Assembly (NCBI GenBank): GCA_013289015.1
Contig: JABDAV010000003.1
Span: forward strand, 1-64,000
DNA: 64,000 nt
Origin: Bacteroidota bacterium
Lineage (GTDB): Bacteria; Bacteroidota; Bacteroidia; Chitinophagales; Chitinophagaceae
Direction of reading: 5' to 3'
Of the stretch, positions 13,397 to 26,903 are shown one piece after another (positions within the stretch are counted from its first letter, which is position 1; each line of letters starts with the position of its first letter). The notes below the pieces were generated by a model. The model did no database searches. It saw nothing but the letters and a program-made list of their open reading frames with translations, and was not told the DNA's origin. The position numbers and the translations under genes are program-made.

Positions 13397-14686
13397 ATGA
13401 CGTATGCAGATACGCTGACATATCTTTACGACCACCTTCCAATGTTTAGTCGCATTGGCGCAGATGCTTACAAGAAAGACCTCTCGAACACAAAACAGCT
13501 TTGTGCAGTATTAAATAACCCGCAACAGGAATTTAAAAGCATTCATATTGCAGGCACCAACGGTAAAGGTTCTGTAAGCCACATGCTCGCCGCTATTCTT
13601 CAAACTGCGGGTTACAAAACAGGATTATATACATCGCCGCACTTAAAAGATTTCAGGGAAAGAATTAAAGTGAATGGTGAAATGTGCAGTAAAGATTTTA
13701 TAATACACTTCACTGAAATAATAAAGCCCCAAATAGAATTGCTTCAACCATCATTCTTTGAGATAACGGTTGCGATGGCATTTGAATATTTCGCACAACA
13801 AAAAGTTGATGTTGCCGTAATTGAAACAGGCCTTGGCGGAAGACTGGACAGCACCAATATTATTGTTCCCGAACTTTCTGTAATAACCAATATCGGTTAT
13901 GATCACATGAACATTCTTGGCGATACTTTAGAAAAGATCGCGTATGAAAAAGCAGGCATCATTAAACAAAATATTCCCGCAGTAATTGGTGAAGCATTAC
14001 CTGCAACAAAAGCTGTTTTTGAAGATGAAGCGAAAGAAAAAAACGCACAGATAATATGGGCGCAGGCAAATTTTTATGTACAGGATTTTACTTACAGTCA
14101 TCATCTTTTAAAAGCAGAAGTAGCAGAGGTGAAAAAAAATGAACATCACATCTACAATATTGATCTTCCCGGTATTTATCAAACAAAAAATTTAGTCACT
14201 GTATTAACAGCAGTGCACCAGCTTCAATTAAAAAAATGGAACATCAAACAACGTGATGTTGATAAAGCATTAAAGCAGGTAAAACATTTAACAGGCCTGC
14301 ACGGAAGGTGGGAAAAGATAAAAGATGATCCAACCGTTATTGTGGATGTTGCGCACAATGTTGATGGCATAAAACAACTCACTGAACAATTAGAAATGGT
14401 AAGCTATAATGAACTGCATCTCATTATTGGTTTTGTAAAAGATAAAGACATCGCAAACATTTTACCACTGCTTCCAAAAACAGCTGAGTATTATTTTACA
14501 AAAGCACAATTGCCAAGAGCATTAGATGAAAATGATCTTGCAATTATGGCAAAGCAAAATGGGTTAAATGGAAAAACTTTTCCTGATGTAAATACAGCAT
14601 TAAAAGAAGCAATTACGCATGCACATAAAGATGATCTTATTCTTATTTGCGGCAGTGTTTTCCTGGTAGGTGAAGTGAATGGATAA
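13397..14686 (+). CDS. folC: Bifunctional folylpolyglutamate synthase / dihydrofolate synthase
   Basis: Adds L-glutamate to dihydropteroate or tetrahydrofolate in folate metabolism, Mur-ligase fold. The P-loop is HIAGTNGKGSVSHML; the folate-loop region TSPHLKDFRERIKVNG, the catalytic segment ETGLGGRLDSTNI and the C-terminal VDVAHNVDGIKQL are all present. The ATG at 13397 (MTYADTLTYLYDHLPMF) gives 429 residues and matches the family N-terminus; an upstream in-frame TTG at 13370 is less likely. Monocistronic after the accC terminator. Confidence 0.95.
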   Translation: MTYADTLTYLYDHLPMFSRIGADAYKKDLSNTKQLCAVLNNPQQEFKSIHIAGTNGKGSVSHMLAAILQTAGYKTGLYTSPHLKDFRERIKVNGEMCSKDFIIHFTEIIKPQIELLQPSFFEITVAMAFEYFAQQKVDVAVIETGLGGRLDSTNIIVPELSVITNIGYDHMNILGDTLEKIAYEKAGIIKQNIPAVIGEALPATKAVFEDEAKEKNAQIIWAQANFYVQDFTYSHHLLKAEVAEVKKNEHHIYNIDLPGIYQTKNLVTVLTAVHQLQLKKWNIKQRDVDKALKQVKHLTGLHGRWEKIKDDPTVIVDVAHNVDGIKQLTEQLEMVSYNELHLIIGFVKDKDIANILPLLPKTAEYYFTKAQLPRALDENDLAIMAKQNGLNGKTFPDVNTALKEAITHAHKDDLILICGSVFLVGEVNG

Positions 14687-14790
14687 GAGGCTTTATATGA
14701 TACATCATTTATCACTGCATTTACAATACGCTTTATTTTATTACTTTGCCATAGCTGATCAAACCTGTTCAAACGATGCTTACATTTTTA

Positions 14791-14972
14791 ACGTGAGTTC
14801 GGGATAGGGAATTTATATCATATTGAAAGTTATGTTACCAGGTTTTGTTATGAAGTTGAATCGTCACCTCGACGCGAGGAGAGGTCTCATAAATTTTTTA
14901 CAGATTTTATTTCGGGAGATTTCTCCTAACGTCGAAATGACGCCTTCTAACTATCTTATCCCGAAGTCACGT
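14791..14972. repeat. Nested palindromic (MITE-like) element overlapping the GH30 start
   Basis: The outer arms are 16 bp with one mismatch: ACGTGAGTTCGGGATA at 14791-14806 and its reverse complement at 14957-14972. Inside lies a second inverted repeat with 27-bp arms at 14862-14888 and 14916-14942 (CGTCACCTCGACG... against ...CGTCGAAATGACG); most arm differences are transitions. The element ends inside the reading frame of the downstream GH30 gene. No transposase is encoded, so it would have to be moved in trans. Confidence 0.75.
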
Positions 14973-16382
14973 TTTATAAAATATCTCTCCTTTTCATTGT
15001 TGATATTTATTGCAAACTTCATTCATGCACAGTCAAACAATATAAATGTTTGGCTGACCAATAAAGACCGCTCTGCTTTATTTCAACAACAAACTCCGCT
15101 TGCATTCAACGCATCCAATAATAATGAGCAAACAATTATTGTTGATGACAGCAAAACTTTTCAAACAATGGATGGTTTTGGATTTGCGCTCACAGGTGGC
15201 AGTGCAATGCATATTATCAACATGCATGCTGATGAAAGAAATAAATTATTGCACCAGTTGTTTGATACAACAGGCAATGCCATTGGTGTGAGTTACCTGC
15301 GTTTGAGCATCGGTTCATCAGACCTGAATGAAAAAATATTTTCTTATGATGATGTTGCAGGCGATACAACCTTATCGCATTTTGATCTCGCAGAAGATAA
15401 AACAGATGTTATACCAGTGATGCATGAAATATTAAAGATCAATCCGCATATAAAAATTCTTGGTTCGCCATGGAGCCCGCCGGCATGGATGAAAACCAAC
15501 AACGATACAAGGGGCGGAAGATTGAAACCTGAATACTATAAAACCTATGCAAATTATTTAGCGCGGTATATAACTGAAATGAAAAAGAACGGCATTACCA
15601 TAGATGCCCTTACTGTTCAGAACGAACCCTTGCATCCGGGTAATAATCCAAGCCTGTTAATGGTAGCGCCGGTTGAAGCAGATTTCGTAAAGAATTATCT
15701 CGGTCCTGTGTTCAAAGCAAAGAACATTAAAACAAAAATTATTATTTACGATCATAATGCAGACAGGCCTGATTACCCCATTTCAATTTTAGATGATGCA
15801 CAGGCAGCAAAATATATTGACGGTTCAGGCTTTCATTTATATGGCGGAACAATGAATGCATTAACCGATGTGCACAATGCGCATCCTGGTAAAAATATTT
15901 ATTTCACAGAACAAATGGTAGTTCAGTTCAACAGGAAAAATGATGATGAATATAATGATCCTTCAAAAATAAATATTGCATCGCCTGTAAGCAGGTTAGT
16001 GATTGATGCGCCGCGCAACTGGAGCAAAAATGTACTGCTCTGGAACCTTGCTGCCGATCCTGATTTCAAACCTTTTACAGATCGCGGCGGATGCCCTGTT
16101 TGCCAGGGCGCTGTTACCATTGACAAGGATAGCGTAACATACAACCTCGCTTATTATACCATTGCACATGCTTCAAAATTTGTGCGGCTAAACTCAGTAC
16201 GTGTCGCTTCAAATAGTTTGGATAGTTTACCTGATGTTGCGTACAAAACACCCAACGGAAATAAAGTTTTACTTGTTGCAAACATCAGCGAAGCAGATCA
16301 AACATTCAATATTCAATACCATAACAAAACAACTACTGCTGTTTTAAAAGCCGGTTCGGTTGCAACTTATATTTGGAAATAA
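14937..16382 (+). CDS. Exported glycoside hydrolase family 30 enzyme
   Basis: Retaining glycosidase of the GH30 (glucosylceramidase/beta-1,6-glucanase) type. Both catalytic acids are visible: acid/base Glu230 in TVQNEPLHPG and nucleophile Glu325 in IYFTEQMV. Also conserved are QTMDGFGFALTGGSA, LRLSIGSSDL and SPWSPPAWMKTN, and a C-terminal beta-sandwich domain follows. The ATG at 14937 gives 481 residues with a signal peptide ending ...ANFIHAQ. The frame opens further upstream (TTG at 14823), but that stretch is a palindromic element, so the upstream codons are unlikely to be genuine. The first ~12 residues before the signal hydrophobic core also derive from the element. Confidence 0.9.
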   Translation: MTPSNYLIPKSRFIKYLSFSLLIFIANFIHAQSNNINVWLTNKDRSALFQQQTPLAFNASNNNEQTIIVDDSKTFQTMDGFGFALTGGSAMHIINMHADERNKLLHQLFDTTGNAIGVSYLRLSIGSSDLNEKIFSYDDVAGDTTLSHFDLAEDKTDVIPVMHEILKINPHIKILGSPWSPPAWMKTNNDTRGGRLKPEYYKTYANYLARYITEMKKNGITIDALTVQNEPLHPGNNPSLLMVAPVEADFVKNYLGPVFKAKNIKTKIIIYDHNADRPDYPISILDDAQAAKYIDGSGFHLYGGTMNALTDVHNAHPGKNIYFTEQMVVQFNRKNDDEYNDPSKINIASPVSRLVIDAPRNWSKNVLLWNLAADPDFKPFTDRGGCPVCQGAVTIDKDSVTYNLAYYTIAHASKFVRLNSVRVASNSLDSLPDVAYKTPNGNKVLLVANISEADQTFNIQYHNKTTTAVLKAGSVATYIWK

Positions 16383-17086: not shown

Positions 17087-17130
17087 AGAATGAAACGAAA
17101 TTCTATATCATACTAAAAATTCCCTTTCTC

Positions 17131-17276
17131 GCAATGTCTCCTAAATAACTATGTGTGTGAGCCGGGACATTGCGTTTTACCTAACGAAATTCTATATCAT
17201 ATTATAAATTTAACTTCGGTTCAGGCTGGATGAATTTCAAATACCAGTTCTTCCAAGCCCTGACATTAGCGGCAAT
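17131..17276. repeat. Dispersed repeat X, copy 1
   Basis: About 146 bp shared with copy 2 at 21204-21399. It opens with a hairpin (GCAATGTC ... GACATTGC), continues with the conserved TTTTACCTAACGAAATTC block, then ATTTCAAATACCAGTTCTTC, and ends at GGCAAT. Copy 2 has an extra ~50 bp in the middle. No coding potential. Confidence 0.75.
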
Positions 17277-18175: not shown

Positions 18176-18276
18176 AGCTCCAGTAAAATATAAACAATAC
18201 AAACCTCACCTACATATCACCCTGTTTTATTGTTACGGGTTTAAACACTTCCGTTTCATTCTATGTAGATAAACTT
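18176..18276 (+). pseudogene. Relic of the 5' end of a VOC-family gene
   Basis: This 101-bp stretch is about 95% identical (five differences by eye) to 26493-26594, which spans the leader and first ~27 codons of the intact VOC gene at 26514. One base is missing at the start codon (ACAATGACA has become ACAATACA), so it can no longer initiate there. Homology stops at AAACTT, four bases before a REP-like element. The remaining ~100 bp upstream (18080-18175) hold only a GCTAACACCGGGTTGGCAAT motif and no gene. Confidence 0.85.
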
Positions 18277-18280
18277 TTAG

Positions 18281-18390
18281 GTCGAGCATCGTCTCCTGAA
18301 AGGGACGATGCGGCTGAAACGGATGATGCGGTTGAAATTAAAATTCGCCACTAAATAACGCATCGTCCTCTGCGAGAGACGATGCACGAC
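18281..18390. repeat. REP-like double hairpin, copy 1
   Basis: GTCG at the left end (18281) and its complement CGAC at the right end (18390) flank two 26-nt hairpins. Hairpin 1 is at 18286-18311 and hairpin 2 at 18360-18385, each closed by an 8-bp GCATCGTC / GACGATGC stem with a bulge and short inner stem. The two halves are inverted copies of each other. This copy has an extra internal duplication (GATGCGGCTGAAAC, then GATGCGGTTGAAA). The layout matches bacterial REP/BIME elements. Confidence 0.8.
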
Positions 18391-18475
18391 AACAAATCAG
18401 CCAGATAACTCTGATAACGCAATCAATTAAATCGTAATTGCAAATGACTCCAGTAAAAACATTAAAAATAAAAAT

Positions 18476-18940: not shown

Positions 18941-19029
18941 ACAGATATCATTATTTATGGCAAGTAAGACATAGTTTGAAATAAAAAAGAGAAAAACTGC
19001 CCATAATAACTAAGATTTCGTTGCTTTCC

Positions 19030-19121
19030 GTCGAGCATCGTCTTCTGAAAGGGATGATGCGATTGAAATCGAAATTCTCTATTATATAACGCATCGTCCT
19101 CTACCAGAGACGATGCTTGAC
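19030..19121. repeat. REP-like double hairpin, copy 2
   Basis: 92 bp: GTCG foot at 19030, hairpins at 19035-19060 and 19091-19116, right end TGAC. Hairpin 2 (GCATCGTC ... GACGATGC) is perfect in its 8-bp stem; hairpin 1 has one G.T change. The inner spacer is about 30 bp. Confidence 0.8.
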
Positions 19122-19250
19122 AAGAAAATTGTAATTTTATAAATATATGAAAATCAGTAGTTGATTTTTTATGTTAGTCAGGATTCATCTTTCAATCAAG
19201 GAAGCATTAAAGGATAAGATACGATGAGCTAAAATGAAAAATAAAAAACA

Positions 19251-21203: not shown

Positions 21204-21399
21204 TCAATATCTCCTAAATAGCCATGTGTATGTGTGAGCCGTCGCATTGCGTTTTACCTGACGAAATTCTATATCATACCAAAATTTGGCGATATCAATA
21301 ACAATGAACTTTTAATTATAAATTTAATCCGGCATGTGCGGGATTCCGGGCTGGACGAATTTCAAATACCAGTTCTTCAAGCCTAACGTTGGTGGCAAT
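21204..21399. repeat. Dispersed repeat X, copy 2
   Basis: Second copy of the element at 17131-17276, about 196 bp long. It keeps CTCCTAAATA, GCATTGCGTTTTACCT, GACGAAATTCTATATCAT, ATTTCAAATACCAGTTCTTC and the GGCAAT end, with a ~50-bp insertion. The hairpin is degenerate here. It spans most of the gap between the XRE gene and the beta-lactamase-fold gene. Confidence 0.72.
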
Positions 21400-23163: not shown

Positions 23164-23355
23164 ATGCGAACAGTTTTTATAATCATATCAATCTTAAGCT
23201 TGACTTCATTGCAGGCACAAACAGTTGACACAAAAGCTGCTTCAGCTGACAGTACAAAGAAGGGGCTGCCATCAGCATACAATGCTGAAAGAAGGGCCCT
23301 GGTAAATCCTTCCTCAAAGCGTAAGGAAATCTTTTTGTCGAGCATCGTCTCCTGA
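23164..23355 (+). CDS. Short exported protein, probably truncated by a REP-like element
   Basis: 63 residues from ATG 23164 with a clear signal peptide (MRTVFIIISILSLTSLQAQ) and a polar mature part (TVDTKAASADSTKKG...SSKRKEIFLS). The final codons and the TGA stop lie inside the REP-like element starting at 23337, so the original C-terminus is probably gone. No family is recognised. A TTG at 23149 is an alternative start. Confidence 0.5.
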   Translation: MRTVFIIISILSLTSLQAQTVDTKAASADSTKKGLPSAYNAERRALVNPSSKRKEIFLSSIVS

Positions 23356-23414
23356 AAGGAACGATTCGGCTGAAATGAATAACGCATTGTCCCCTGTGAG
23401 AGAAGATGCCCGGC
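23337..23414. repeat. REP-like double hairpin, copy 3 (degenerate)
   Basis: GTCG foot at 23337, hairpin 1 at 23342-23367 and hairpin 2 at 23384-23409, both with mismatched stems. It is the most diverged and shortest copy (78 bp) and lies within the coding frame of the short exported protein. Confidence 0.7.
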
Positions 23415-26513: not shown

Positions 26514-26903
26514 ATGACAAACCTCACCTACGTATCACCCTGTTTAATTGTTACGGGTTTAAAGACTTCCGTTTCATTCTATGTAGATAAACTTGGCTTT
26601 GAAATCCGGTATATCGGTCCGGATGACGACCCCTATTTTGCTATTGTTGGCCGCGATAATATTTCCATTATGCTCAAGGCAGTTGCTGCTGACGTAAAAC
26701 CAATTCCTAATCATACACGTCATCACTGGGCTCCTTCGGATGCGTACATTTCTGCTACAGAACCAGACAAGTTGTTTGAAGAATATCGTTCAAATGGTGT
26801 AGCATTCAGAAAGCCTATCCATGACAATAGTGATAATTTAAGGGGGTTTGAAATAGAAGATGCTGATGGGTATGTTTTATTTTTTGGACGACCTAATTCA
26901 TAA
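26514..26903 (+). CDS. VOC-superfamily protein (glyoxalase / bleomycin-resistance type)
   Basis: 129 residues: PCLIVTGLKTSVSFYVDKLGFEIRYIG opens the first module and GFEIEDADGYVLFFGRP closes the second, with metal-ligand-like His/Glu positions plausible in both. Members bind or modify small molecules; the specific role is unknown. The first ~27 codons and leader are duplicated as a broken relic at 18176-18276. Confidence 0.9.
   Translation: MTNLTYVSPCLIVTGLKTSVSFYVDKLGFEIRYIGPDDDPYFAIVGRDNISIMLKAVAADVKPIPNHTRHHWAPSDAYISATEPDKLFEEYRSNGVAFRKPIHDNSDNLRGFEIEDADGYVLFFGRPNS

What the first reader, a model, noticed from the sequence alone, without database searches (positions are those of the whole stretch)
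14791..16382. A palindromic element provides the start codon of a GH30 gene
A nested inverted repeat (outer arms 14791/14972, inner arms 14862/14942) ends inside the GH30 frame. The only good start (ATG 14937) and the first ~12 residues before the signal-peptide core come from the element. Insertion seems to have replaced the native N-terminus while keeping a working signal peptide.
Basis: partly seen in the sequence, partly recalled or inferred. Interest (0 to 1): 0.6.

Follow-up and report, generated by a model that had tools for sequence, protein, structure and literature searches.

The report
Mobile palindrome in glycosidase gene start
A small non-autonomous transposable element has jumped into the first codons of a secreted sugar-cleaving enzyme gene in a Bacteroidetes bacterium, cutting off the original start codon and leaving a start codon inside the element in frame; such fusions are known from other bacteria, so this is a clean new example rather than a new kind of thing.

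Summary
Window 14791-14972 is a 182-bp terminal-inverted-repeat element with an inner REP-like inverted pair. A full copy (2 differences) lies on contig C45, and its terminal repeat recurs across the genome. A same-genus genome (G002) has the same folC-GH30 gene order without the element. The native ATG survives at 14776 but now reads six codons into a stop in the element's end. The element's ATG at 14937 is in frame and yields a plausible 31-residue signal peptide. So "the insertion replaced the native N-terminus" is right for the DNA. "Keeps a working signal peptide" is unproven: if the whole element is transcribed, ATG 14937 is buried in a hairpin costing 22-24 kcal/mol to open, against 3.7 for the relative's native start and about 2-9 for eight other window starts. 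Expression is probably reduced, or depends on transcription from inside the element or on an upstream in-frame start. MITE-gene 5' fusions are published (MITEAba12; Rickettsia palindromic elements), so this is a new member of a known kind. In the same genome a second REP-core ATG, on C26, opens a kdpD-like gene.

The parts
13397..14686 (+). folC (folylpolyglutamate/dihydrofolate synthase), the syntenic upstream neighbour
   Evidence: TIGR01499 389.8 bits for 13403-14683; 93% DNA identity to G002 folC
14776..14796 (+). surviving native GH30 start codon; now a six-codon dead-end frame (M L T F L T stop), the stop lying in the element's left end
   Evidence: alignment to G002, where the homologous ATG opens the intact gene; sequence
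14785..14790 (.). left target-site-duplication candidate TTTTTA
   Evidence: 5 of 6 match to 14973-14978; family duplications are 6-7 bp
14791..14972 (.). the inserted element: 182-bp MITE-like element with terminal inverted repeats
14791..14806 (+). left terminal inverted repeat ACGTGAGTTCGGGATA
   Evidence: 0 mismatches
14957..14972 (-). right terminal inverted repeat ACGTGACTTCGGGATA (one base off the family consensus at 14966)
14862..14888 (+). left arm of the inner REP-like inverted pair (begins CGTC)
14916..14942 (-). right arm of the inner REP-like pair (reads CGTC... on the minus strand); holds ATG 14937 on the plus strand
   Evidence: occurs alone many times in genus genomes
14850..14852 (+). 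alternative in-frame ATG inside the element (others: TTG 14823, ATG 14832, TTG 14856)
14937..14939 (+). most plausible new start codon, in the inner REP-like arm
   Evidence: accessibility problem
14973..14978 (.). right target-site-duplication candidate TTTATA
14937..16382 (+). GH30 glycoside hydrolase (nearest NCBIfam model: endo-1,6-beta-glucanase, below cut-off), 481 aa from ATG 14937
   Evidence: PF02055 161 bits, PF17189 41.5 bits; NF053856 384 bits against a cut-off of 700

Best explanation
A 182-bp non-autonomous, terminal-inverted-repeat element (MITE) carrying an internal REP-like inverted pair inserted after the fifth codon of a secreted GH30 gene, probably duplicating 6 bp of target (TTTTTA). 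The native ATG at 14776 survives but now stops after six codons in the element's end. By chance of frame the element's right half is open into the gene, so an ATG in its inner palindrome (14937) can supply a new, longer and more positive n-region (MTPSNYLIPKSR + FIKY) in front of the untouched hydrophobic core and cleavage region. Shown: the element, its copies, the empty site, the severed native frame and the open new frame. Inferred: that protein is made from ATG 14937, probably weakly, because read-through transcripts bury this ATG in a long hairpin; good initiation would need transcription starting inside the element. The confidence given covers the anatomy and the frame; that ATG 14937 is really used I put at about 0.45.
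For: Copy with 2 of 184 differences on another contig with unrelated flanks and its own 6-bp duplication. Terminal-repeat family: 56 hits against 4 control. Target duplications in the family: 17 of 48 pairings have a perfect 6- or 7-bp duplication, against 0.8-1.5% for left and right flanks taken from different copies. Syntenic empty site in G002 with folC at 93% and GH30 at 85% DNA identity; removing the element and one 6-bp copy restores a frame of the same signal-peptide length as G002, 22 residues to the A-Q cleavage point. 0 of 76 GH30 relatives with >= 400 bp of upstream DNA carry the terminal repeat there. The new frame has an n-region charge of +3 and the same hydrophobic core. GH30 dN 0.062 / dS 0.69 against G002, and no excess of changes in the window lineage (28 against 27 sites).
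Against: Opening ATG 14937 costs 21.9-24.2 kcal/mol for transcripts starting at 14690-14791, against 5.8-8.4 if they start at 14865-14916. No Bacteroidetes-type promoter match with <= 1 mismatch was found at 14641-14960; the single 2-mismatch match (14720/14741) lies upstream of the element (the consensus was recalled). The window's own target duplication is imperfect (5 of 6), and 8.6% of control pairs do as well. dN/dS mostly reflects time before the insertion. Only one relative has the same gene order.
Confidence: 0.8

Rival explanations
1. The insertion has silenced the gene: it is a fresh 5'-disrupted GH30 allele whose frame is open only because the event is recent; the in-frame ATG is incidental. 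(Same anatomy as the best explanation, different outcome.)
For: Native frame stopped after six codons. ATG 14937 buried at 22-24 kcal/mol in read-through RNA. The element differs at only 2 sites from its sibling, so there has been little time for decay. No match at E <= 1e-30 in G001 and only a 35% identical one in G003, so the enzyme may be dispensable in the genus (G001 is 67% complete).
Against: Frame intact over all 481 codons, with both motif regions that I recall as catalytic in GH30 (NEP, TEQ) present. The n-region generated is unusually suitable (+3 charge). The one change that is clearly derived in the right end (14966, C to G) turns Asn into Lys in the n-region.
Confidence: 0.4
2. 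Translation starts upstream in the element (ATG 14850, ATG 14832 or TTG 14823), giving a 29-38 residue longer N-terminus, with elongating ribosomes melting the hairpin.
For: These starts are in frame and cost less to open, 7.9-9.7 kcal/mol.
Against: It would put about 47 residues before the hydrophobic core, long for a signal peptide. In the C45 copy the frame entered at the same ATG closes after 35 codons, so it is not a conserved element-coded peptide.
Confidence: 0.12
3. Assembly artefact: a repeat copy wrongly stitched between folC and GH30 in a draft assembly.
For: The genome is a 189-contig draft estimated 66% complete, and repeats are where drafts fail.
Against: Both outer flanks are syntenic with G002, and the element sits inside that gene pair; a chimera would join unrelated flanks.
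Confidence: 0.03

Closest known systems
MITEAba12 (Acinetobacter), PMC6382973 (abstract and passages seen, section 11 read in full)
   Same: Short terminal-inverted-repeat non-autonomous element with target duplications; some copies supply the first residues (MQQS) of an adjacent coding sequence read outward from the element end.
   Different: 113 bp, 9-bp duplications, weak structure, mobilised by ISAba12; unrelated sequence. Here 182 bp, 6-7 bp duplications, very strong hairpin, no autonomous partner found.
Rickettsia palindromic elements (RPE), as described in PMC10969869 (passages seen)
   Same: Palindromic repeats of about 150 bp that sit in frame within genes and can modify the protein.
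   Different: RPEs encode a conserved peptide and are often in-frame translational fusions; here it is a 5' replacement, and only this one of 26 paired copies examined enters a gene's 5' end.
CGTC-tagged REP repeats (PMC3733652, abstract and passages seen)
   Same: The inner arms begin with CGTC and form an inverted pair; the module also occurs without the terminal repeats; Bacteroidetes is among the phyla listed there.
   Different: The stem (ATTTC/GAAAT with a 10-nt loop) does not match the 8-9 bp stems and 4-5 nt loops given there; membership not established.

Membership tests
[quoted passage not shown]
   ACGTGANTTCGGGATA at both ends, 0 mismatches
[quoted passage not shown]
   182 bp; 26 paired copies of 100-260 bp in the own-genome loci scanned; related copies in same-genus genomes
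[quoted passage not shown]
   family: 17 of 48 pairings perfect 6-7 bp against about 1% in controls; this copy 5 of 6
[quoted passage not shown]
   G002 folC-GH30 without the element
[quoted passage not shown]
   no pair of ends around a transposase seen in the loci examined; the own genome is a 66% complete draft
CGTC-tagged REP | CGTC at one end | tested here: met
   both inner arms begin CGTC
CGTC-tagged REP | 8-9 bp stem with 4-5 nt loop and unpaired tail | tested here: not met
   by inspection of the arm sequence; feature definition from passages of PMC3733652
RAYT-mobilised REP | REP flanking a Y1_Tnp (RAYT) gene | tested here: inconclusive
   Y1_Tnp genes present in 6 of 8 genus genomes; none of the 4 loci checked, of 25 matches, has the core nearby
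GH30 glycoside hydrolase | GH30 barrel and C-terminal beta domain above Pfam cut-offs | tested here: met
   PF02055 161 bits, PF17189 41.5 bits

The most novel reading that the evidence does not exclude
The REP-like core GTCGAAATGACG, recurrent in this genus, works as a mobile start-codon cassette: its ATG is preceded by AAA and, when the core lands with this strand facing a gene, it can become that gene's start, with the hairpin as a built-in translational brake lifted only when transcription begins inside the element. Two genes in one genome fit: this GH30, and a kdpD-like potassium-sensor gene (C26:7158-8318) whose only ATG ahead of its conserved domain is the one in a REP pair placed just after a kdpC-like gene.
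Probability: 0.12. Interest if true: 0.55.

Novelty: new member of a known kind. Interest (0 to 1): 0.3.

Why it matters
It is a well-documented natural case, with an empty site and the old start codon still visible, of a small mobile element rewriting the 5' end of a secreted enzyme gene. It makes a precise, testable prediction about where translation starts and how much a hairpin costs. It also warns that gene callers may mark element DNA as signal peptide.

Tried and rejected
Element-coded conserved peptide (RPE-like): rejected, because the frame open here closes after 35 codons in the C45 copy and no such fusion was seen in the other 25 of 26 paired copies examined. Three of those 25 touch or abut a longer ORF: L006 and L088 lie at an ORF's stop, and L120 lies 10 nt before an ATG.

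Autonomous partner: looked for pairs of ends 0.5-3 kb apart. The 484-, 979- and 1,924-bp cases gave no recognisable transposase; the interior of the 2,999-bp pair was not read for ORFs. Not found.

Accelerated evolution of GH30 after insertion: 28 against 27 sites, no signal. Three outgroup loci (L037, L044, L045) were dropped by my motif filter.

Clustered changes in the new N-terminus: the window differs from its sibling at 14952 and 14966, and its two target-duplication copies differ at one base; all three fall in the new coding stretch. 14966 is clearly derived, but 14952 is mixed among copies, so I do not lean on this.

RAYT link: the core was not found beside the 4 Y1_Tnp loci checked.

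In one search one yardstick start (13403) was set wrongly (it is TAT) and is dropped; eight remain.

Paper searches. They do not show that this element is unpublished, only that I did not meet it.

Full report
What is there. Window 14791-14972 is a 182-bp element with inverted ends (ACGTGANTTCGGGATA) and an inner inverted pair (14862-14888 / 14916-14942) whose arms begin CGTC. As RNA it folds at -70.5 kcal/mol, z = -7.0 against 200 shuffles. The window's own genome (189 contigs, 3.59 Mb, estimated 66% complete) holds a full copy at C45:7981-8164 that differs at 14952 and 14966 only. The ends recur 56 times at <= 2 mismatches, against 4 for the reversed pattern. All 8 genomes searched in the genus, the own one included, match part of the element. 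Most of those matches are the inner REP-like module alone, and the ends themselves are found in 6 of the 8.

Family behaviour. Over 48 paired ends in the loci held (own genome and same genus; a few ends are counted in two pairings), 10 show a perfect 7-bp and 7 a perfect 6-bp duplication. For left and right flanks of different copies the control rates are 1.5% and 0.8%. So the family transposes with 6-7 bp, AT-rich duplications. No autonomous insertion sequence with these ends was found in what I read.

The empty site. In G002, same genus (named record JABDFS010000006.1, a metagenome-assembled Bacteroidetes bacterium, identity of locus checked), folC is followed by the same GH30 gene: folC 93% and GH30 85% DNA identity, protein 86%. 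There the gene begins ATG CTC ACA TTT TTT AAA..., MLTFFKSVLFSAFIFTATFLNAQ. The window keeps the start (14776, ATG CTT ACA TTT TTA) but then runs into the element: M L T F L T stop. Taking out the element and one copy of the 6-bp duplication gives MLTFLKYLSFSLLIFIANFIHAQ, exactly the length of the G002 signal peptide (22 residues to the A-Q point). The duplication is TTTTTA / TTTATA, 5 of 6, so on its own it is weak (8.6% of controls do as well); the empty site carries the argument. None of 76 GH30 relatives (of 80 fetched, G002's record included) with at least 400 bp upstream has the terminal repeat there; one of 76 (L190) has a core-like match. Of the 80 loci, only G002's record keeps folC next door.

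The new reading frame. The element is open in the GH30 frame from 14808 on. In-element starts are TTG 14823, ATG 14832, ATG 14850, TTG 14856 and ATG 14937. From ATG 14937 the protein is MTPSNYLIPKSR from the element, then FIKYLSFSLLIFIANFIHA|Q from the gene and its duplicated target: n-region charge +3, hydrophobic core unchanged. This is a good-looking signal peptide by inspection; no signal-peptide predictor was available.

Does it work? In read-through RNA (5' end at 14690, 14740, 14757 or 14791) freeing the ATG 14937 region costs 21.9-24.2 kcal/mol. With a 5' end at 14865-14916 it costs 5.8-8.4. The relative's native start costs 3.7, and eight other ORF starts in the window cost 2.1-9.1 (a ninth was mis-set and dropped). 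The upstream in-element starts cost 7.9-9.7. A scan for the Bacteroidetes promoter pattern (recalled consensus TTTG / TAnnTTTG) found no match with <= 1 mismatch in 14641-14960 and one with 2 mismatches at 14720/14741, upstream of the element. So the likely outcome is a gene whose output is reduced unless a promoter lies in the element's right half. Whether the protein is made cannot be told from sequence. GH30 as a whole is under constraint (dN 0.062, dS 0.69 against G002; folC 0.030 / 0.30), and the window lineage shows no excess change (28 against 27 sites, 12 outgroups), but the insertion is too young for this to speak to the time after it.

Is it common? Of 26 paired copies examined in the own genome, this is the only one that enters the 5' end of a longer gene frame (a few further pairs listed, such as C67:16300-16492 and C97:6997-7188, were not examined). 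I also looked at the inner core GTCGAAATGACG by itself: 6 of 6 exact occurrences in the own genome and 30 of 72 in G002, G005 and G007. Of these 36, two ATGs open long frames: GH30 (481 aa) and, at C26:7158, a 387-aa kdpD-like protein (NF038185 KdpD_non_kinase, 360 bits, below its 550 cut-off). The other 34 close within 52 codons. The kdpD-like ATG lies 87 nt after the stop of a kdpC-like frame (kdpC named from recall) and has no other ATG before the conserved domain. Its relatives in G003 and G004 have different N-termini without this core in the stretches read, and G003 has no ATG there either, so the native start is uncertain.

Known or new. MITEAba12 copies supplying the first residues of neighbouring genes are described in PMC6382973 (section 11 read). 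In-frame fusions of MITEs, and Rickettsia palindromic elements in genes, are reviewed in PMC10969869 (passages seen). CGTC-tagged REPs, including Bacteroidetes, are in PMC3733652 (passages seen). This is therefore a new member of a known kind, with unusually complete evidence of before and after.

Noticed in passing
L234:1480-2667 (G000:C26:7131-8318): A REP-like inverted pair just after a kdpC-like gene places its core ATG as the only ATG ahead of a kdpD-like gene: a second candidate start codon supplied by the same inner module.
   Followed up: partly
L147:252-1617 (G000:C28:4451-5816): A sibling copy of the element is split in its inner REP module by about 1.2 kb holding broken frames that look like an IS110-type transposase (recalled motif, no family search).
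   Followed up: partly
window 18199-18396, 19020-19127, 23327-23385, 26517-26594: Another set of dispersed repeats with GCATCGTC/GACGATGC palindromes, up to 96% alike between copies.
   Followed up: no
window 17094-17253 and 21231-21378: A repeated block (86-97% alike pieces) follows two unrelated short genes.
   Followed up: no
L120:1084-1258 (G000:C88:2283-2457): Another copy of the element family lies 10 nt before the first ATG of a frame of about 320 codons with a signal-peptide-like start, so these elements may also alter leaders without entering the gene.
   Followed up: no
L032 (G002) folC-GH30 spacer: The relative's spacer differs from the window's except for the last ~30 nt and holds its own small palindrome-like stretch (CCCCATCTCCTAAAGGGG).
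   Followed up: no
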